Source: Bifidobacterium sp. B4142
Lineage (GTDB): Bacteria; Actinomycetota; Actinomycetes; Actinomycetales; Bifidobacteriaceae
Direction: 5' to 3'
NCBI RefSeq assembly: GCF_026537325.1
Contig: NZ_JAFNMJ010000001.1
Coordinates: 434,001 to 498,000, forward strand
Length of the DNA: 64,000 nt
Shown: in pieces, positions 1-35,913 of the stretch
How positions within the stretch are numbered: position 1 is the first letter of the stretch
How the letters are laid out: the number at the start of each line of letters is the position of its first letter
Notes under the pieces: generated by a model
Told to the model about the DNA's origin: nothing
Database searches by the model: none
The model's input: the letters and a program-made list of their open reading frames with translations, nothing else
Position numbers and translations under genes: made by a program

Positions 1-1209
1 TTGGTGCAGCAGACATGGGACTTTCGGGATTATCATCATGCCTTCAACGGAATAACTCTGACTGAGTTCGATAAGGGCACGATGAAATTAATGCCTGAAA
101 CCGAGCGGATAATCTGGAAAGGCAGCAAGGTAAAAGTCACTGAAGGACCGCACCTATATCGGATCGGAGACTATTATTATCTTTTCGCGGCCGAAGGAGG
201 TACCGGCTATGAACATCAGGAATCCGTGGCTCGCTCACGAAGTCTTGATGCGCTATCGTTCGAGGCGATGCCGAATAACCCACTGCTAGGGAACTATTTA
301 ACTCCCGAATCTTACTTGCAGAAACAAGGGCATGGTTCGTTGGTAGATACCCCTGATGGCCAGTGGTATTATGCGTCTCTTTGTGCTCGTCCATGGCATC
401 GTCCGCAAGATCCGGTGAACGGAGTTAGAGGATGGTGCACTCTTGGCAGAGAGACCTCAATACAGAAGCTGGAGTGGACAGATGATGGGTGGCCTTATAT
501 CGTAGGCGGCCAAGCCGGTCAACGGTATGTCGATCCTCCGGTAGAACCAAGTACGGAGAGCCAGCCATCCAACAGGTTTCACGACGATTTTCAACTTTCA
601 GAGCTAAACCAAGTATGGAATACATGTCGTGTACCATTTTCCGAAAAAATGGGATATGTAGGCGATGGCTGTTTACGACTAAAGGGTGGTCAATCCTTAA
701 CCAGCAGGGATGAACTTGCCATGATTGCTCGACGCTGGGACGCGTTTAACTTTACTGCTGAGACAAAAGTCGAGTTCAACCCCCACTCCTATATGCAGAT
801 GGCGGGCCTGACCAATTATTACAATGATCACTTTTGGTCTTGGATCTACCTAACTTGGGATGAAGAGCGCGGTTGCAAAGTAATTGAAATCTCTGAGTGC
901 AACAGAGGTCGTTATCATTCCTTCCTGCATGACAGGAGCATAATAGTGCCCCAACAGGTTCAATCAGTGTGGCTGCGCACCCAGGTTGATACCGATATGT
1001 ATCGGTATGAATATTCATTTGATGGTCATCGATTCGTTTCGTTGCCATGTGTTTTGGATGCTCGAATTCTGTCGGATGATTATGTTGCTCAGTCCTCTGG
1101 GGGTTTCTTCACTGGGGCTTTTTCTGGCTTGGCTTGTGTCGATCTCGGAGGATATAGGCGCGAGGCACATTTTGATTATTACGACTATAAAAGTTGGGAT
1201 GTTGATTGA
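1..1209 (+). CDS. Glycoside hydrolase family 43 protein, 3' part (5' end outside window)
   Basis: Predicted arabinofuranosidase or xylosidase acting on plant hemicellulose oligosaccharides. The frame is open from base 1, so the gene starts upstream and the catalytic-base Asp of the GH43 propeller is not in view. Visible are the general-acid segment VTEGPHLYR (about residues 45-53), the blade motif QGHGSLVDTPDGQWYY, and from about residue 193 a second domain (FHDDFQLSELNQVWNTCR onward) of the concanavalin A-like beta-sandwich type found at the C-terminus of GH43 beta-xylosidases. Base composition is clearly more AT-rich than the genes after 2 kb, and the gene sits on the 3' side of a tRNA-Glu gene, so acquired sequence is possible. 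The exact substrate cannot be told from the fragment. Confidence 0.85.
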   Translation: MVQQTWDFRDYHHAFNGITLTEFDKGTMKLMPETERIIWKGSKVKVTEGPHLYRIGDYYYLFAAEGGTGYEHQESVARSRSLDALSFEAMPNNPLLGNYLTPESYLQKQGHGSLVDTPDGQWYYASLCARPWHRPQDPVNGVRGWCTLGRETSIQKLEWTDDGWPYIVGGQAGQRYVDPPVEPSTESQPSNRFHDDFQLSELNQVWNTCRVPFSEKMGYVGDGCLRLKGGQSLTSRDELAMIARRWDAFNFTAETKVEFNPHSYMQMAGLTNYYNDHFWSWIYLTWDEERGCKVIEISECNRGRYHSFLHDRSIIVPQQVQSVWLRTQVDTDMYRYEYSFDGHRFVSLPCVLDARILSDDYVAQSSGGFFTGAFSGLACVDLGGYRREAHFDYYDYKSWDVD

Positions 1210-1221
1210 AAGGACGATTTA

Positions 1222-1308
1222 GCCTCCTTATCGCTGAGTCAGTCTTTTGCAGCTGGACGTCACCAAGACAAGGTGTTTTACCCTTGCGATAGGTGTTGTG
1301 ATGGAGGC
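1222..1308 (+). terminator. Possible terminator after the GH43 gene
   Basis: Thirteen bases after the GH43 stop, GCCTCC (1222-1227) can pair with GGAGGC (1303-1308), and TATCGC (1229-1234) with GCGATA (1286-1291). The structure is followed by CTTTTATT. The loop is long and there is an internal bulge, so this is only a weak candidate. Confidence 0.25.
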
Positions 1309-1466
1309 CTTTTATTGTAAGTGATATTAAAAAATGTGAACTATATGGTGTCTATTAATGGCTTGCAGAATGAAAGCCGAGTCGCTAAACCAAACTTCCT
1401 ATAGGGAATGGAATTGTCGAAAGAGAGTCCGGTTAAGTCTCCAATAGGCAGAGTTTTAGATATACA

Positions 1467-1504
1467 AGTCGATAAACATATGGTTCAGCATATGTTTATC
1501 GACT
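1467..1504. repeat. Perfect 16-bp inverted repeat with 6-nt centre
   Basis: Arms at 1467-1482 and 1489-1504 are exact reverse complements (AGTCGATAAACATATG and CATATGTTTATCGACT), separated by GTTCAG. There is no T-tract on either side, so an intrinsic terminator is not the obvious reading. A dimeric repressor operator or a mobile-element end are alternatives. There is no adjacent regulator gene to link it to. Confidence 0.6.
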
Positions 1505-1683
1505 ATTAACGTGGTTGCTGCAAATACATGTATTTTGGACACATTGCCGCAGTTGAGGTTTTCATTAGCTGACTATGTAATTTTGGATCAAAAATTGTTA
1601 TAGAAAATCATGTATTGCCTTGCTAAAAAGAACTTGAAATCAGAATATGATCCGCGCCGCTTAGGCAGCTGACGTGAGGTTCT

Positions 1684-1857
1684 ATGCAAAAGCGTGGCAA
1701 AGAGTTGTCTTCTGTCGTGAAGGTAATTGTGCTGGAGTGTTTTGAGGTTGGCTGCTTTACATGCCAAGGCAGATCTTCAGTCTGCGTGCGACCCAATCTG
1801 ATCTTTTGCGATGAGACCCAAAACAGTGACGTTTTCTGTGATTATTCAAGTACGTAA
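1684..1857 (+). CDS. Possible small Cys-rich protein (57 aa)
   Basis: An ATG preceded by GTGAGG at five bases opens a 57-codon frame ending at TAA 1855-1857. The product has six cysteines (residues 19, 24, 27, 34, 42, 52), which is high for its size, and a short hydrophobic run VVKVIVLECF near the N-terminus. There is no typical signal peptide and I recognise no family. It sits between the inverted repeat and tRNA-Glu in AT-rich sequence. The frame may well be open by chance. Confidence 0.2.
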   Translation: MQKRGKELSSVVKVIVLECFEVGCFTCQGRSSVCVRPNLIFCDETQNSDVFCDYSST

Positions 1858-1918
1858 CAGTTCATGAAGCTTGTGGTTACAGCTTTTATTCTCTCAACAG
1901 GATATGCCGTAAAACTTG

Positions 1919-1990
1919 TACCCCCGGAGAGAGTCGAACTCTCGCTGTCAGATTGAAAGTCTGGTGTCCTAACCGTTAGACGACGGGGGC
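1919..1990 (-). tRNA. tRNA-Glu (anticodon TTC)
   Basis: Read on the minus strand the sequence begins GCCCCCGTCGTCTAACGGTT. It has a complete D arm, an anticodon stem-loop containing CTTTCAA (anticodon TTC), the T loop GTTCGACTC, and a closing acceptor strand CCGGGGGT that leaves a G1-U72 wobble, then discriminator A. CCA is not encoded. Its 3' end faces the AT-rich region at 1-1,918. Confidence 0.93.
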
Positions 1991-2050
1991 GAACGTGCCC
2001 ATGATACCCGCACCCTATGGACCAGGCAAGCCTGGTGTGCCGTCCGCTGG

Positions 2051-29843: not shown

Positions 29844-31250
29844 ATGCAACAATCCGAAGCCTTGACCATATTGAGTGCGGGGGCCAATGCCTTCATCACA
29901 GGTGCCCCAGGGTCAGGCAAGACTTTTGTGCTCAACGAGTTCGTCCACCAGGCCCGGCAGGCCGGAGCGGTTGTGGCGGTGACAGCCTCGACCGGAATTG
30001 CCGCTACGCACATCAACGGCCAGACTATCCACTCCTGGAGCGGTGTGGGAATCGCCACCTGTATGACGGAATCGCTCTTGAAGCGGATCAAGACCCGTCG
30101 TCGCAGGCAGATTGAAGGCACCGACATCCTGGTCATCGACGAGGTCTCCATGATGCACGCCTGGCTCTTCGACATGGTGGACCAGGCCTGCCAGGCTGTT
30201 CGCCACAGCCCCGAGCCTTTCGGAGGGATCCAAGTGGTCCTTTCCGGGGATTTCTTCCAGCTGCCGCCGGTGACCCGGTCCAACCGAGCTGCAGGGATAC
30301 TGCCCAGCCCCGAATTCCAGGCTGCCCGGGAACGCTATGCTCAGGTTGGCAAGGATCCGGATGGGTTCGTTACCGAATCACTGGTCTGGCGGGAACTGGA
30401 CCCCGTCATCTGTTATCTGACTGAGCAGCATCGCCAGGACGATGGTCAGCTGTTGACCGTCCTGACTGATATCAGGGAGGGCGGCGTCACCCAGGAGGAC
30501 CATGAGGTCCTGGCTGCCCGAGTCGGCGCAGTGCCTGCTCCTGGACAGGTCGCAGTCCACCTCTTCCCGGTCAACAAGCAGGCCGACACGTTGAATGACC
30601 AGCGCCTGGCCTCCATCGACGAAGAGGCCCACCATTACCAGGCCACATCCCGGGGCGAGACAAGGCTGGTTGAGCGGCTGAAGAAGAACATGCTGGCCCC
30701 CGAGGATCTGGCCCTGAAGACCGGAGCGGCGGTCATGGCTCTGCGCAACGACCAGGATCATCAATATGTCAACGGCTCCATAGGCACAGTCAGCGGATTC
30801 ACCAGCTCGGCCAAGGGGGGATGGCCGATTGTCTCCTTCCAGAATGGCAATCTGGTCACTATGAAGCCGGCCGCCTGGGAGACTATGGATGGGGATACGG
30901 TCTTGGCCGCCGTCAATCAGGTTCCCCTTCGCTGCGCATGGGGGATCACTATCCACAAGTCCCAGGGGATGACCTTGGACAGGGCAGTCATGGACCTGAG
31001 ACGGACCTTCGCGCCAGGGATGGGCTACGTGGCCCTCTCCCGTGTGGAAAGTCTGGATGGGCTCTATCTGACGGGCATCAATGAGCACGCCTTCCTGGTC
31101 TCTCCCGATGCCGTCGTTCTGGATGCGGGATTGAGGGCCGAGTCCAAGGCGGCCTGCGCCCGTCTGAAGGATGAAGGTCCTGAGTCCTTCACCAAGCGGG
31201 CCGTCGGTCAGGAACCAGAAGACGAATTCAGCCAGGACCAGCTTTTCTGA
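29844..31250 (+). CDS. PIF1/RecD2-like superfamily 1B DNA helicase
   Basis: 468 residues. Walker A GAPGSGKT at 20-27, motif Ia TASTGIAATHINGQTIHSWSG, Walker B LVIDEVSMM, motif III LSGDFFQLPPV, and the C-terminal motifs ITIHKSQGMTLDRAVMDL and GYVALSRVESLDGLYL. This is the pattern of PIF1 helicases, which unwind G-quadruplexes, R-loops and stalled forks in a 5'-to-3' direction. ATG 29844 is preceded almost directly by GGAGG, too close for a normal ribosome-binding site, so the start is less certain. It follows orn on the same strand. Confidence 0.88.
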   Translation: MQQSEALTILSAGANAFITGAPGSGKTFVLNEFVHQARQAGAVVAVTASTGIAATHINGQTIHSWSGVGIATCMTESLLKRIKTRRRRQIEGTDILVIDEVSMMHAWLFDMVDQACQAVRHSPEPFGGIQVVLSGDFFQLPPVTRSNRAAGILPSPEFQAARERYAQVGKDPDGFVTESLVWRELDPVICYLTEQHRQDDGQLLTVLTDIREGGVTQEDHEVLAARVGAVPAPGQVAVHLFPVNKQADTLNDQRLASIDEEAHHYQATSRGETRLVERLKKNMLAPEDLALKTGAAVMALRNDQDHQYVNGSIGTVSGFTSSAKGGWPIVSFQNGNLVTMKPAAWETMDGDTVLAAVNQVPLRCAWGITIHKSQGMTLDRAVMDLRRTFAPGMGYVALSRVESLDGLYLTGINEHAFLVSPDAVVLDAGLRAESKAACARLKDEGPESFTKRAVGQEPEDEFSQDQLF

Positions 31251-31283
31251 AGGGTCGTCCTTATTGGTCTTGGCCCGGTATGG

Positions 31284-31740
31284 TTATTTGGGTAGTTCGA
31301 GACGCCATGACAGGCGAACCATGTCTCTAAGGGTGATTCCGTTCTCGCAAAATAATTCCGTTCAATGCGGTCCATGCGAAACCCGCATGTCTGGTAGAAG
31401 CAAAGGGCTCCAAAACTGGTGGATCCGGTCCCAACTTCCAGCCTTCTCAGGCCCAGCCTGACAGTCTCCATCTTGGCTCGGTCTATTAATCTACTTCCAA
31501 GCCCCTGTCTGCGATAAGCGCGGTCCACATTGATATCGGCAATTTCCACGGTATCCGTGTTCGGTCTGGCAAGCAGCATGACACCGGCCAGGGTTTGTCC
31601 TACTCGGATTTCATAGGCGCGGGAATGGGTGAAACGTCACGGATTATCCGTTCTGAGGGATCGGCCTCCAGGAGGAGCGTCAAGTGCTCTGCGTCGAGGT
31701 TGGTAAAGGTCTGGATGGTCACACCCGGCTCTGAAGACAT
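31284..31740 (-). pseudogene. GNAT acetyltransferase broken by two frameshifts
   Basis: Read from ATG 31740 on the minus strand, the protein runs MSSEPGVTIQTFTNLDAEH through PSERIIRD and then hits a stop; one frame over, THSRAYEIRVGQTLAGVMLL continues into the acetyl-CoA loop RRQGLGSRLI and CGFRMDRIERNYF. Near 31346 the sense moves frame again to ENGITLRDMVRLSWRLELPK and a stop at 31284. The three pieces join into one ordinary GNAT of about 150 residues. Shifts lie near 31632-31640 and near 31346. The gene is recently inactivated, or there are two sequencing errors; the substrate is unknown. Confidence 0.8.
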
Positions 31741-32010: not shown

Positions 32011-32790
32011 TTATTTCTTGTCCATAATCATTCCCCGGCCTCCGGTGACCGTCCAGAGTATGACGGCGAAGACCGTCAAGACCGTGGCAATCGCCGGCCA
32101 AGTACCCTGTCCAGGAACGGGTGGTCTAACGTCCTCGGGGTATAGACGGAGCGACATTCCCATGCCTACTTGCATACTTTGGCTGGCGATATTAATCACT
32201 GCCAGCCCTGCGCCCAGTCCAAGCCCGTAGAAACGACCCAGTGATGCGATGCCGAGCATGACCGAAGATGCGTCGACTAGGCCGTTGCAGACAGCCAGCC
32301 TGAGCAGCGACTGTGCACTGGCCGAGTCGCCGCGGGAGCTGGGTATGGTAAGGAGGAGGTTGAGAAGAAACGGCAGCATCAGCACGCCTGTCCCGGCGGC
32401 CAGGGCTCGCCAACGGACGCGCGCCAGGTTCAGGCGCTCCCATGTGGGCATAAGCGGGGCAAGCATGACCAAGGCGCATGCGCTGAACGCCGCGTAGGCC
32501 AGCTCGGCCATGGGTACGATACTGGGTACGGCGCTTTTGCCTTGTGAGCATTGGGTGTGCACGGCGCCGTTGAATACCGCTGCATGTGGATCGGGAACGC
32601 ATACGTATCCGTAATAGGCTGGCCGGGCATAGATCTCCCCGCCGGTAGCTGACGTGGAGGCGGAAGCAAGCAGGAAGGGCACGGCCGTAGCCAGCACGAC
32701 GAATGCCAAGGCCGCCCATGGGCGGCGCCCAGCCAACCATCCGACCGAGATTCCGCCTTTCATGGAACCATGTCGATGCCGGCCACCCAT
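32011..32790 (-). CDS. Polytopic membrane protein of the peptide/ABC cassette
   Basis: 259 residues with about five to six membrane segments (for example PWAALAFVVLATAVPFLL, ELAYAAFSACALVMLAPL, GVLMLPFLLNLLLTI, ATVLTVFAVILWTV). Between the first two lies an extracytoplasmic loop of about 60 residues with two Cys. The start overlaps the stop of the larger permease gene (ATGA), with GGGGAAG upstream, so it belongs to the same operon. I recognise no family; by position it could be a second transporter subunit or an immunity protein. Confidence 0.65.
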   Translation of the reverse strand: MGGRHRHGSMKGGISVGWLAGRRPWAALAFVVLATAVPFLLASASTSATGGEIYARPAYYGYVCVPDPHAAVFNGAVHTQCSQGKSAVPSIVPMAELAYAAFSACALVMLAPLMPTWERLNLARVRWRALAAGTGVLMLPFLLNLLLTIPSSRGDSASAQSLLRLAVCNGLVDASSVMLGIASLGRFYGLGLGAGLAVINIASQSMQVGMGMSLRLYPEDVRPPVPGQGTWPAIATVLTVFAVILWTVTGGRGMIMDKK

Positions 32791-34289
32791 CAGTGGTTCT
32801 TCCCCAGACCATTGATGACATCGGACGGCGTGACGGTGCAGCGTTCGATGTCAGAGAGGTTACGACGCACATAGGCATGGAACTCTTCATTCGTAGCGTC
32901 GTTGAGCAGATCGGCGGCAGGGCCTCGGGCGCTTCCCAACCCAGAGATTGCGCTTCCCCCGCCCAGGGACTGGTAGGCGGTCTCTCTCATGCGCTGGGGC
33001 AGCTGCTCCAGTACGAAGGCGGACACGCTGGCACCGCCATCCAACGTCCGTTGTTTATACACGTTTTTAAGTGCCGTAGCCGCGCAGTCCGCATGAATGA
33101 ATTCCTCCACGATGGCCTCCGTGACATCAGCTAGGTCGCTGTATCGTCCAGTGCGTTCGGTGACTGTGTCGGTCATCACCTGTATCTTCTTGCCGCCCAA
33201 CTGTCGCAGTTCGGCCAGGCCTTGGCCGGTGAGATTCCATGCCTGGCCGTGGGTTGTGGGCGTAAAGGCGTTGCCCAGCAAAAGCACAAGACCCGATCTG
33301 CCCTCCACGCTGTCCTTGGGGAACCATGAGGCGACCGACTGCATATACCGCATGTAGCGTCTCAGCTGGGCATCATCATCCGGGTGGGCGCACACTGACA
33401 GCGGCACACCGTCTATGCTTTTGCACACAGGGGTGAACGGAACGGATCGGCGCCATTCTGCCAGGCTGGACATGGCGACCAGGCCCCCGGCAGCAGTCGG
33501 AACAAGCAGAAGCACCACCAATGGGGCGACTATCCATGACAGGCTGCGCCGCCACCGGTGTGCCGTCAGTATGCATGCCCCAGTGGATGCGGCCAGCACT
33601 ACCGCGACTAAAATCCAGCGCACTGCCACAGCTGACGGATTAATCCTGAGCCCCGGCTCAGCACCGATGCCCGTGTCCATTACCGGCATCACCACGGATA
33701 GAGCCGACCCCCACATTCGGGGAAACACGTCCCCCTTGGGTACGCGCGGTATGAGCAGTACCACGCTGCCCCAACACAGGATCGCAGGCAAGAGTGTGGC
33801 CGGCACCATGGACCAGCGGCTGCCCATGATGGCGCCGAGCGCATAACCGAGGGCGAACATTGCCGCCGGCACTGCCATGCCCATGAGCAAGGCTCCCAAG
33901 GGAACTGATCCGCCCGTGGATTGCAGAGTCTGGACAATGGCGGGAAGACAGCCCGCCACATAGGCCAGGGAGCACAATGCAGCGCCTTTGAGGACAGGTG
34001 CGCTGTATCTGCGGACGGCCGACCCCCCGATCCAGGGCGGCGCAATCATGGACCGCGGGGAGCATGCCTTCCAGGCACTCCACGCACCAAACATGCAGGC
34101 AATCACATCCGTCACTAGATGCATCCAGGTCAGGTCAAGCTGCAAGGCGGCGTTTGGCAACACCCGCAGGGACGCGTCTGGTCGGCCGACGCCGTAGTTG
34201 CGCACCGATAATGCAGCCGGATATGCCATCATTGACAGAAAGAACACCAGCGAGCTTATCGGCGATAGGGGATTGAGCAGCCGGACCAT
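32790..34289 (-). CDS. ABC-type membrane protein with large C-terminal extracytoplasmic domain
   Basis: 499 residues. About seven hydrophobic segments occupy residues 10-300, followed by roughly 200 residues with no membrane segment, beginning SLAEWRRSVPFTPVCKS and containing CAHPDDDAQLRRYMRYM, a GKKIQVMTDTVTERTG stretch and VEEFIHADCA. With seven helices this tail would lie outside the membrane. Paired Cys (VCKS...VCAHP) could form a disulfide there. ATG 34289 overlaps the ATPase stop (TAATG). The layout recalls large membrane proteins of lactococcin 972-like operons, but I cannot assign it to that family. Confidence 0.65.
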   Translation of the reverse strand: MVRLLNPLSPISSLVFFLSMMAYPAALSVRNYGVGRPDASLRVLPNAALQLDLTWMHLVTDVIACMFGAWSAWKACSPRSMIAPPWIGGSAVRRYSAPVLKGAALCSLAYVAGCLPAIVQTLQSTGGSVPLGALLMGMAVPAAMFALGYALGAIMGSRWSMVPATLLPAILCWGSVVLLIPRVPKGDVFPRMWGSALSVVMPVMDTGIGAEPGLRINPSAVAVRWILVAVVLAASTGACILTAHRWRRSLSWIVAPLVVLLLVPTAAGGLVAMSSLAEWRRSVPFTPVCKSIDGVPLSVCAHPDDDAQLRRYMRYMQSVASWFPKDSVEGRSGLVLLLGNAFTPTTHGQAWNLTGQGLAELRQLGGKKIQVMTDTVTERTGRYSDLADVTEAIVEEFIHADCAATALKNVYKQRTLDGGASVSAFVLEQLPQRMRETAYQSLGGGSAISGLGSARGPAADLLNDATNEEFHAYVRRNLSDIERCTVTPSDVINGLGKNH

Positions 34290-35071
34290 TATGAGACCCC
34301 TTCCTGGTCGGATGGCAGGTGTCCAGTCCCCTTCAGAAGCTGTCGATAACCAGATTCCCAAGGCGATGCCATTGAGTCCTCAGGACTGGCCAAGGCTGCG
34401 AGATCATCCATGTGTCCGTCCAGGAGCAGATGCCCATGATTGAGCACCAGTACACGGTCGGCAATTGCGGCCAGGTCCTCAACCAAATGTGTACTTACCA
34501 GCACCGTGTGACTGTCCGCATAGGCGTCGAGGAATCTACGTACCTCAATGCGCTGCACCGGGTCGAGGCCAACGGTCGGCTCATCCAAGACGAGCACGTC
34601 GGGACGGGCAACAATCGCACAAGCGATGCCTACCCGTTGACGCATGCCGCCGGACAGGCTGCGCACCGGGCGGTGGGATTCCCCGGACAATCCCACCTGC
34701 TCCATGGCCCACACTGCTGCGTCGCAGGAAGCACTCCAGGACAAACCACGCGCCCATGCGGCATACCGCACGTTGCGCATGAGGCTGGAGGCATCCATCA
34801 GCTCGAAGGATTGCGGCAAATAGCCAATCCGGCTCCTGGCCCGACGTCGTCCAGAGCTGGTCAGCACATGCGCCCCGGCAATCTTCACATCGCCCGACGA
34901 AGGTCGCGATAAGGTGGTTACAATATTCAGGAGGGTCGTCTTGCCGGCACCGTTCGGACCCAGCAGGCCGTATACGCCATTGCCGAAGCTCAACGATACA
35001 TCGGATAGCACCCGTCTATGTCCGTATGAGAAACAAACATGCGACAGGGAAACGCACACTTTATAAGTCAC
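34289..35071 (-). CDS. ABC transporter ATP-binding protein of the peptide cassette
   Basis: About 260 residues. Walker A GPNGAGKT, Q-loop LPQSFELMDASS, signature LSGGMRQRVG, Walker B VLVLDEPTVGLDP, switch His in VSTHLVEDLA: an intact ATPase of the ABC-2/bacitracin-export type. The start is uncertain: GTG 35071 and GTG 35059 both lie after the terminator at 35088-35126, while the longest frame (TTG 35116) would begin inside the terminator stem. No strong ribosome-binding site is visible. Translationally coupled to the permease; probably powers export of, or resistance to, the peptide encoded upstream. Confidence 0.8.
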   Translation of the reverse strand: MTYKVCVSLSHVCFSYGHRRVLSDVSLSFGNGVYGLLGPNGAGKTTLLNIVTTLSRPSSGDVKIAGAHVLTSSGRRRARSRIGYLPQSFELMDASSLMRNVRYAAWARGLSWSASCDAAVWAMEQVGLSGESHRPVRSLSGGMRQRVGIACAIVARPDVLVLDEPTVGLDPVQRIEVRRFLDAYADSHTVLVSTHLVEDLAAIADRVLVLNHGHLLLDGHMDDLAALASPEDSMASPWESGYRQLLKGTGHLPSDQEGVS

Positions 35072-35087
35072 TATTGAACCAAACTGT

Positions 35088-35126
35088 AAAAAAGAGAAGC
35101 GGTCCTTCTTCTGCAAAGAACCGCTT
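35088..35126 (-). terminator. Terminator between peptide gene and transporter genes
   Basis: On the minus strand AAGCGGT (35126-35120) pairs with ACCGCTT (35103-35097), with further pairing inside between TTCTT and AAGAA, and the stem is followed by CTC and six T (35093-35088). It lies 17 bases past the stop of the small secreted peptide. It should end most transcripts and let a fraction read through into the ABC genes. Confidence 0.82.
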
Positions 35127-35142
35127 AACCAACCGAGTAGTC

Positions 35143-35478
35143 TTACGGGTTTCCTACCTCCAAACTCACAGGGTTACCGCTTGGAACATCGTTAACACCT
35201 AATGGACACCCACCCGAATAGCTGGTGCCGTTCTTGATCCAACCGGTGTATTGATCGGGCCATAATCTACAGGCAATCTTTGCCCTGGCATATCGAGGCG
35301 AGTTCTTACAAGTATTTTTGGCTTGGTTGTTATGTCGAGCAGCTCGGCACGGGACAAATATCCTCATCCCCGAAAACGACACCGCCTCATCAGCATATAC
35401 TACTGCTGGAACTGCTGCAAACATACCAAGCGCAGCAACAGCAGCGAGAAGTTGTCTCATTGTTTTGAAGAACTTCAT
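35143..35478 (-). CDS. Small secreted cationic four-Cys peptide, candidate bacteriocin/toxin
   Basis: 111 residues. A classical Sec signal peptide (basic MKFFKTMR, hydrophobic core to about residue 27, AxA-type end VVYA) predicts cleavage near residue 29-30, giving a mature peptide of about 82 residues. It has four cysteines (VPC, NTC, IAC, GGC), a basic middle rich in Arg/Lys/Asn and aromatic residues in WPDQYTGW. An excellent GGAAGG ribosome-binding site precedes ATG 35478. Own promoter upstream, strong terminator downstream, then an ABC transporter: the arrangement of exported antimicrobial peptides. No homologous family is recognised; a secreted adhesin or enzyme inhibitor cannot be excluded. 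Confidence 0.7.
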   Translation of the reverse strand: MKFFKTMRQLLAAVAALGMFAAVPAVVYADEAVSFSGMRIFVPCRAARHNNQAKNTCKNSPRYARAKIACRLWPDQYTGWIKNGTSYSGGCPLGVNDVPSGNPVSLEVGNP

Positions 35479-35530: not shown

Positions 35531-35559
35531 AGTTTAAAATAAATTATTATACGAGTCAA
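35531..35559 (-). promoter_or_regulatory. Predicted sigma-70 type promoter of the peptide gene
   Basis: On the minus strand TTGACT (35559-35554) and TAAACT (35536-35531) are separated by 17 bases of very AT-rich sequence, with the expected start near 35524 and a 45-base leader to the ATG. Confidence 0.5.
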
Positions 35560-35913
35560 ATCCAGCTTTCTCTACGCGCCTTCCCAGATCCGCGGGTGTC
35601 ATGATCGGCCCCGATCGTCCTCTGGGCTGTGGCCACCACGGCTATGTGTATGATAATACCGATTCCAACGAGTCCTATCCGCAATCGGCCAATGCTGTGT
35701 ATTTCATGGCTTCATCTTTACGATTGCGTCTGGGCAAGCATTGTTTTTTTGGGGATGATTTTCTCTCAACATCGTTGGGTAGTCGTATGCAACGATAGCG
35801 TGCGTCTCTGTGAGAGCACCCATAACCGCAGGGTTCTGGGCTCGCTTTAAGAGAATAATTACAGGTCATCCTCAATGGCTGCTTGTCCCTTTGCGCGCAT
35901 ATCTTTGGGAGGT

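What the first reader, a model, noticed from the sequence alone, without database searches (positions are those of the whole stretch)
32011..35478. Secreted four-Cys peptide with its own ABC transporter: possible new peptide-toxin or bacteriocin system
Seen: a 111-residue Sec-signal peptide with a cationic mature part and four Cys, then an intact ABC ATPase and two coupled membrane proteins, all on one strand, flanked by a broken GNAT gene and AT-rich sequence. Known: lactococcin 972-like and other unmodified bacteriocins often pair a secreted precursor with an ABC exporter/immunity set. Inference: this is a bacteriocin-like system, but neither peptide nor membrane proteins match a family I recognise. 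There is no modification enzyme nearby, so the peptide would rely on disulfides alone.
Basis: partly seen in the sequence, partly recalled or inferred. Interest (0 to 1): 0.78.

Follow-up and report, generated by a model that had tools for sequence, protein, structure and literature searches.

The report
Likely bifidobacterial bacteriocin with immunity pump
A bifidobacterium carries, in one operon, a gene for a small secreted four-cysteine protein and genes for a three-part pump; relatives often keep the pump after losing the protein, which fits an antibacterial toxin with its immunity, though no killing or protection has been tested.

Summary
Four - strand genes at 32011-35478 encode a 111-aa Sec-signal peptide with four Cys, an ABC ATPase (GTG start, 35071-34289), a 499-aa permease with a Cys-bearing C-terminal domain, and a 259-aa permease. 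Peptide and permeases have no meaningful match in Pfam, NCBIfam, PHROGs or PADLOC, yet they form a conserved unit. In 189 Bifidobacteriaceae genomes the peptide profile hits 10 and the permease profile 28; all 10 peptide hits (8 intact, 2 truncated) lie beside the transporter, even where the peptide gene sits at the other end and strand (G749). Conversely, 17 transporter-bearing genomes lack an intact peptide gene, 8 with visible relics; 15 of the 17 keep three open transporter genes, with dN/dS 0.10-0.19 in six that share one peptide breakpoint. By upstream flank the unit occupies eight sites. Best reading: a Sec-secreted, unmodified, disulfide-stabilised bacteriocin-like toxin whose ABC-2-like transporter gives immunity rather than export. 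It works like lactococcin 972 but fails that family's sequence tests. Killing and immunity are inferred, not shown; in the pneumococcal parallel, a strain keeping only the transporter genes was still inhibited. Main rival: a secreted immunity or signalling partner of the transporter.

The parts
35143..35478 (-). Four-Cys peptide gene: 111 aa, Sec-type leader (about residues 1-29), mature about 82 aa with Cys at 44, 57, 70, 91
   Evidence: profile hits in 10 of 189 Bifidobacteriaceae genomes; four Cys invariant in the seven intact peptides aligned and present in the eighth
35531..35574 (-). Promoter-like sites ahead of the peptide gene (TTGACT-17-TAAACT and TAGAGA-17-TATAAT); a GATTTGACTC box also stands directly ahead of the ATPase in six same-genus peptide-less genomes
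   Evidence: 6 promoter-like sites in 1 kb on both strands against 1.4 expected; two of the six are these; alignment; consensus match only
35097..35126 (-). 12-bp stem-loop followed by a T-run between peptide and ATPase: possible terminator or attenuator
   Evidence: -20.7 kcal/mol, 7 of 200 shuffles fold as well; 2 terminator-like sites found, 1.2 expected, so weak on its own
34289..35071 (-). ABC ATPase, 260 aa, GTG start, drug-export type
   Evidence: PF00005 3.1e-31; best NCBIfam GldA and DrrA, both below cut-off
32790..34289 (-). Permease 1, 499 aa: ABC-2-like membrane half (about 1-278) plus C-terminal domain (about 279-499) with conserved Cys, presumably extracytoplasmic
32011..32790 (-). 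Permease 2, 259 aa, with an invariant Cys pair (C64, C81) between its first two predicted membrane segments

Best explanation
The unit is a bacteriocin-like toxin/immunity operon. The peptide is made with a Sec leader, cut after ...VYA by signal peptidase, and folds outside the cell into a small cationic protein held by two disulfides (four invariant Cys); no other modification. It acts on related bacteria at the envelope (target unknown; perhaps a conserved wall precursor, as for lactococcin 972). The ATPase with permeases 1 and 2 forms one ABC-2 exporter that protects the producer by expelling or displacing the peptide, with the C-terminal domain of permease 1 as the likely capture part. A terminator-like hairpin keeps peptide message above transporter message. 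Cells that lose the peptide but keep the pump can stay protected, so the pump outlives the toxin. Shown: linkage, conservation, peptide decay with pump retention, low dN/dS of the pump, ABC-2-like fold of permease 1 (low-confidence model). Inferred: secretion, disulfides, killing, immunity, target, attenuation.
For: Linkage: 10 of 10 peptide-bearing genomes (of 189) have the transporter next to it; hypergeometric 1e-9 ignoring kinship; linkage survives relocation to the other end and strand in G749. Asymmetry: of 25 genomes with a recognisable transporter, 8 have an intact peptide, 8 only a truncated relic (6 keep the first 118 bp, 2 about the last 106 bp), 9 nothing found. The transporter is open in 15 of the 17 without intact peptide; dN/dS among the six with the shared breakpoint 0.099, 0.192, 0.189, and 0.112, 0.206, 0.274 among four same-genus peptide-less genomes. 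Ancestry: peptide occurs in each multi-genome deep branch of the transporter tree; peptide and transporter distances correlate, r 0.92, 21 pairs of 7. Mobility as a unit: eight upstream contexts; in G088 the unit is 50% GC in a 59% locus. Anatomy: leader, cationic, exporter-type ATPase, ABC-2-like permease. Precedent: pneumococcal scbABC complete in 414 of 571 genomes, scbBC alone in 157 (PMC11796350, passages).
Against: No activity, structure or export was measured. In the pneumococcal precedent the D39 strain, which keeps scbBC without scbA, was inhibited by the producer in overlays and biofilm (PMC11796350 section 12), so keeping the pump genes does not by itself show protection. The mature peptide is more conserved than the pump between some clades (own vs G088 75% over 73 aa; ATPase 52, permease 1 37, permease 2 33%), unlike a toxin in an arms race. 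Low dN/dS on an orphan pump fits any useful exporter. The six genomes with the shared breakpoint are not a clade in the transporter tree (supports 0.32-0.86), so not all their divergence need post-date one loss. G774's transporter cannot be read, so only 7 of 8 intact peptides have a readable, open transporter. Distant secreted relatives occur outside the family. The peptide model is poor (pLDDT 56.5). Whether same-genus peptide-less genomes lost or never had the peptide is not shown.
Confidence: 0.55

Rival explanations
1. The peptide is a secreted immunity or resistance partner of the transporter (as LanI proteins work beside LanFEG): it binds a foreign antimicrobial outside the cell and the transporter expels it. 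No toxin is made by the locus.
For: Strong conservation of the mature peptide; pump layout resembles lantibiotic-protection transporters (TIGR03740 132 bits, below its 310 cut-off); unit found in several contexts. No other leader-bearing small ORF was seen near the unit in the 17 loci scanned or elsewhere in the window, but only three of those 17 loci carry an intact peptide and the filter missed the known peptide of G749, so this is weak.
Against: No lipobox: the leader ends VYA|DEA, so it is not a LanI-type lipoprotein; promoter-like sites ahead of it and a terminator-like hairpin behind it suggest a separately expressed structural gene; the peptide decays while the pump is kept.
Confidence: 0.19
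2. The peptide is a signal or cue and the transporter a sensor or importer/exporter for it; the pair regulates behaviour rather than killing.
For: A LuxR-type response regulator lies beside the unit in G088 and G701, and beside a distant transporter in G724.
Against: No such regulator seen by eye within about 3.5 kb at the other sites viewed (9 of the 11 loci; one of them is cut by a contig end); the peptide is large and multi-Cys for a pheromone; regulators are also common in bacteriocin loci (recalled).
Confidence: 0.1
3. The transporter is the peptide's dedicated exporter or folding/maturation factor.
For: Operon with overlapping permease genes; an exporter-type ATPase.
Against: Sec-type leader; 15 of 17 genomes without an intact peptide keep an open transporter with low dN/dS where measured; no peptidase C39 domain in the ATPase.
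Confidence: 0.07
4. The peptide is a secreted inhibitor or surface protein (as the distant Streptomyces-like family may be) that merely travels with an unrelated drug exporter.
For: Distant four-Cys secreted family; the permease was not found in a sample of 395 other phylum genomes (three candidates scored per genome).
Against: Never found apart from the transporter in 189 Bifidobacteriaceae genomes, even after rearrangement; the remote link weakens without its seed sequence.
Confidence: 0.09

Closest known systems
Lactococcin 972 and its kin (pneumococcal streptococcin B, scbABC; mediterrocin)
   Same: Sec-secreted unmodified bacteriocin of roughly this size (mediterrocin 114 residues with a 25-residue leader) with an ABC transporter thought to give immunity; genomes that keep only the transporter genes (scbBC in 157 of 571 pneumococci); a separate transcript of the structural gene reported for lcn972 (PMC4786598, PMC4055356, PMC12345188 passages; PMC11796350 passages and section 12).
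   Different: No match of peptide or permeases to any lactococcin 972 or DUF1430 model; four Cys; two permease genes instead of one 7-TM protein; ATPase 124 bits to TIGR03608 against a 255 cut-off.
LanFEG / BcrAB-type immunity and resistance exporters (named from memory)
   Same: One ATPase plus two permeases, ABC-2-like fold of permease 1, ATPase related to TIGR03740 and DrrA models.
   Different: Cut-offs not met; permease 1 has an added ~220-residue Cys-bearing domain; no lanthipeptide genes recognised beside it.
Four-Cys secreted proteins of a large-genome actinobacterial genus (probably Streptomyces; L055-L084)
   Same: Leader, four Cys in the same order, a C..(W)PD....W core; mature-only profile match better than 200 of 200 column shuffles and 200 of 200 Cys-fixed shuffles.
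   Different: About 24% identity over 41 columns; the match falls to probability 18% when the seed L055 is left out, still above 150 of 150 shuffles. The seed's genome has a TetR-like gene and a DrrAB-like ABC pair near it (my reading of ORFs) but no permease-1 homologue; the neighbours of the others were not examined.

Membership tests
Lactococcin 972 bacteriocins | Peptide matches the lactococcin 972 profile | tested here: not met
   No such model among hits up to E 10 in Pfam or NCBIfam; no PDB sequence match up to E 10
Lactococcin 972 bacteriocins | Seven-TM DUF1430-type membrane protein | tested here: not met
   No DUF1430 or bacteriocin-associated membrane model for permease 1 or 2
Lactococcin 972 bacteriocins | ATPase of subfamily TIGR03608 | tested here: not met
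   124.3 bits against cut-off 254.85
Lactococcin 972 bacteriocins | Sec-type signal peptide, no modification enzyme | tested here: met
   Hydropathy and cleavage-like VYA|DEA; no modification enzyme recognised by eye among neighbouring ORFs; no dedicated predictor available
Lactococcin 972 bacteriocins | Fold of lactococcin 972 | tested here: inconclusive
   Peptide model pLDDT 56.5, not searched
Lactococcin 972 bacteriocins | Inhibits related bacteria | not testable with these tools
   Needs an assay
Class II bacteriocin with double-glycine leader and C39 exporter | GG leader and C39 peptidase-ABC protein | tested here: not met
   Leader ends VYA; ATPase has no C39 domain
LanFEG lantibiotic-protection transporter | ATPase above TIGR03740 cut-off | tested here: not met
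   132.1 bits against 309.75
ABC-2 / type V exporter | ABC-2 permease fold in permease 1 | tested here: met
ABC-2 / type V exporter | Pfam ABC2_membrane match | tested here: not met
   None for 12 permease-1 or 12 permease-2 members; best unrelated hit E 0.14
LanI-type immunity lipoprotein | Lipobox with Cys at +1 | tested here: not met
   Sequence of P0001: first Cys is residue 44

The most novel reading that the evidence does not exclude
A previously undescribed family of Sec-secreted, disulfide-only bacteriocins of bifidobacteria (the window's genus with Bifidobacterium sp. 7101, B. pseudolongum, B. cuniculi and, by GC and genome size, probably vaginal Gardnerella-type lineages), with its own class of ABC-2 immunity transporter carrying an extracytoplasmic capture domain, maintained as a mobile producer / immune-non-producer polymorphism across the family.
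Probability: 0.47. Interest if true: 0.75.

Novelty: new variant of a known kind. Interest (0 to 1): 0.56.

Why it matters
Few bacteriocins are known from bifidobacteria (recalled). A unit seen in eight genomic contexts, with decay of the peptide and retention of an open pump, would give a natural series of producers, pump-only strains and decayed loci within gut and perhaps vaginal communities. It makes a concrete test possible: does the pump alone protect against the peptide? That is also open for lactococcin 972 loci, whose B and C products one paper says were never verified (PMC11796350, passage). If yes, a new unmodified antimicrobial scaffold and a new immunity transporter type follow.

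Tried and rejected
Family searches with the peptide and permeases gave nothing meaningful (PDB by sequence 24, 25, 63, 64; a distant-family member 65). Plasmid search: no match for permease or peptide; viral contigs: none. The phylum-wide peptide search gave 34 weak hits besides the window's own (E 0.002 to 0.1); 19 had loci. I translated those 19, but seven lie on the - strand and were read on the wrong strand there; re-read the seven. By eye none but L043 shows a leader with four Cys; the 15 without loci were not looked at. L043 was thus picked from a noisy list, so I repeated the profile test without it: the signal fell. A first profile comparison was spoiled in the same way and discarded; one search corrected it and left out one locus (L082) in which no matching ORF was found. 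A degenerate metallopeptidase tail in permease 1 was considered (EEFIHADC); those residues are not conserved across the 12 homologues, so it is not claimed. The peptide model was too poor for a fold search; one attempt met a busy machine and was not repeated. Fold rows cover only the membrane half; the C-terminal domain of permease 1 is untested. Paper searches in which I recognised no description of this unit: 7 of 7 listed; 15 of 30; 12 of 40; 12 of 32; 12 of 24; 10 of 11; open-licence full text only. A three-gene 'lantibiotic resistance ABC transporter' of G. vaginalis (PMC2928729, table passage) could be this pump; not checked. After the filing check I lowered the main odds from 0.58 to 0.55 (and the novel case from 0.50 to 0.47) because of PMC11796350 section 12.

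Rows dropped: G774 (transporter not readable: run of N and a contig end) and G742 (transporter split) were left out of the tree; G774 also out of the distance correlation. G012, G019 (decayed relics) and G724 (distant) are counted in the 28 but not in the 25.
Full report
What is there. Four genes lie head to tail on the - strand: a 111-aa peptide (35478-35143), an ABC ATPase (GTG 35071 to 34289), permease 1 (34289-32790, 499 aa) and permease 2 (32790-32011, 259 aa). Both permease starts overlap the preceding stop by one base; the peptide gene has a Shine-Dalgarno-like sequence, the ATPase gene none that is obvious. The peptide has one hydrophobic stretch (residues 10-28), a VYA|DEA cleavage-like site and a cationic mature part of about 82 residues with Cys 44, 57, 70, 91. 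Between peptide and ATPase is a 12-bp stem-loop with a T-run; the fold is only moderately better than shuffles (7 of 200 as good). Promoter-like sites lie ahead of the peptide.

Distribution. With single-sequence queries, 4 of 149 relatives genomes (own included) had the peptide and 13 the permease. With profiles, the family as held (189 genomes) gave 10 with the peptide and 28 with permease 1. Of the 28, two (G012, G019) hold only decayed relics and one (G724) a distant transporter. The other 25 divide as follows: intact peptide 8 (G000, G008, G017, G088, G701, G749, G765, G774); truncated relic 8 (G742 and G771 keep about the last 106 bp; G707, G743, G769, G770, G772, G773 keep the first 118 bp at one shared breakpoint); none found 9 (G001, G003, G005, G010, G011, G013, G057, G746, G754). 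All ten peptide profile hits lie beside the transporter; none was found without it. G774's transporter cannot be read in the held assembly, so a readable open transporter accompanies 7 of the 8 intact peptides. Named relatives, by matching contig lengths, are Bifidobacterium sp. 7101 (G017), B. pseudolongum subsp. globosum 2093B (G088) and B. cuniculi LMG 10738 (G701). The group with 1.5-1.8 Mb genomes and AT-rich loci (locus GC 0.36-0.44) looks like Gardnerella-type lineages; that name is my inference, not a tool result.

Does the transporter need the peptide? Of the 17 genomes without an intact peptide gene, 15 have all three transporter frames open; G742 is split and G746 has a stop in permease 2. 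Among the six with the shared peptide breakpoint, pooled dN/dS is 0.099 (ATPase), 0.192 (permease 1) and 0.189 (permease 2) over 15 pairs. A caution: in the transporter tree these six mix with the intact G765 and the other relic G771 at low support (0.32-0.86), so recombination or poor resolution is possible and not all of that divergence need post-date one loss. Four same-genus peptide-less genomes give 0.112, 0.206 and 0.274, where the time of loss is unknown. A transporter whose only task was to export this peptide should have decayed. Orphan immunity fits; so would any other useful efflux.

History. In the tree of concatenated transporter proteins (23 genomes) peptide-bearing genomes appear in each deep multi-genome branch, so the peptide is probably ancestral to the unit and was lost several times. 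Full-length peptide and transporter distances correlate (r 0.92, 21 pairs of 7 peptides; relatedness inflates this). By upstream flank the unit lies in eight contexts (tblastx E 1e-30): one in the window's genus (9 genomes), one in the AT-rich group (10) and six single ones; G088 and G701 share their downstream flank, which holds a response regulator. In G088 the unit is 50% GC in a 59% locus. In the six same-genus peptide-less genomes a GATTTGACTC box like that of the peptide promoter stands directly ahead of the ATPase, as if the peptide gene had been lost from, or gained, between promoter and pump.

Conservation. Own versus G088 and G701: mature peptide 75.3 and 74.0% over 73 residues, leader 20 and 23%, ATPase 52 and 49%, permease 1 37 and 38%, permease 2 33 and 26%. 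The mature peptide is thus the slowest part between these clades, which suggests a conserved target or partner. This is less marked elsewhere: full-length peptide distance to G765 and G749 is 0.53 and 0.52 against 0.56 and 0.58 for the transporter.

Remote relatives. A phylum-wide sample (396 genomes) gave only the window's own peptide below E 0.001, but one weak hit (L043, E 0.018) has a leader and the same four-Cys layout. The permease profile matched none of the other 395 genomes of a phylum sample that includes the seed genome G315 (three candidates scored per genome). Near the seed gene lie a TetR-like gene and a DrrAB-like ABC pair (my reading); other neighbourhoods were not examined. 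Mature-only profiles align with probability 62%, above all 400 shuffles; without the seed the probability is 18%, still above 150 of 150. I read this as probable distant homology, not proof.

Interpretation and comparison. The nearest working analogue is lactococcin 972: Sec-secreted, unmodified, with a putative ABC immunity transporter (PMC4786598, PMC4055356, passages). In pneumococcus 157 of 571 genomes keep only the scbBC genes (PMC11796350, passages), the same asymmetry as here. Two facts from that paper cut the other way: it says the B and C products had not been verified in any lactococcin 972 locus, and its section 12 (read whole) shows the scbBC-only strain D39 inhibited by the producer, so transporter genes alone did not protect under those conditions. 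The present unit works like that system but is not a member: profile tests fail for peptide, membrane proteins and ATPase subfamily. I put 0.55 on toxin/immunity, 0.19 on a secreted immunity partner, 0.10 on signalling, 0.09 on unrelated cargo and 0.07 on a dedicated exporter.

Literature. Six searches of open-licence full text (between 12 and all of the papers listed per search, as given under Tried and rejected) showed no paper that I recognised as describing this unit. Of the papers cited I saw passages, and of PMC11796350 also section 12.

Noticed in passing
window 31208-31739: GNAT acetyltransferase gene next to the unit is broken here but open in the relatives G008 and G017 (L020, L024).
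   Followed up: partly
L030 9537-11447 and the matching stretch of L031: Decayed relics of permease 1 and, by eye, permease 2, between a ClC-like channel gene and an MFS-like gene in two same-genus genomes (L030 only viewed).
   Followed up: partly
L029 9614-11570; L034 6838-8656; L123 4853-5644: A LuxR-type response regulator (and in two cases a likely sensor kinase gene without Pfam match) sits beside the unit or its distant relative.
   Followed up: partly
L028 3899-11959: In G057 the peptide-less transporter lies inside a cluster of mevalonate-pathway-like genes (my reading of the ORFs).
   Followed up: no
L055-L084: Secreted four-Cys protein family in 29 of 150 genomes of a large-genome actinobacterial genus, without Pfam match in eight members scanned; some genomes carry two copies.
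   Followed up: partly
L123 5583-8363: G724 carries a distant ATPase/permease set with a shorter C-terminal domain but a similar Cys pattern (by eye), and no leader-bearing small ORF found nearby by a rough filter.
   Followed up: partly
window 1-2000: AT-rich stretch (GC 0.457 against about 0.60), not examined.
   Followed up: no
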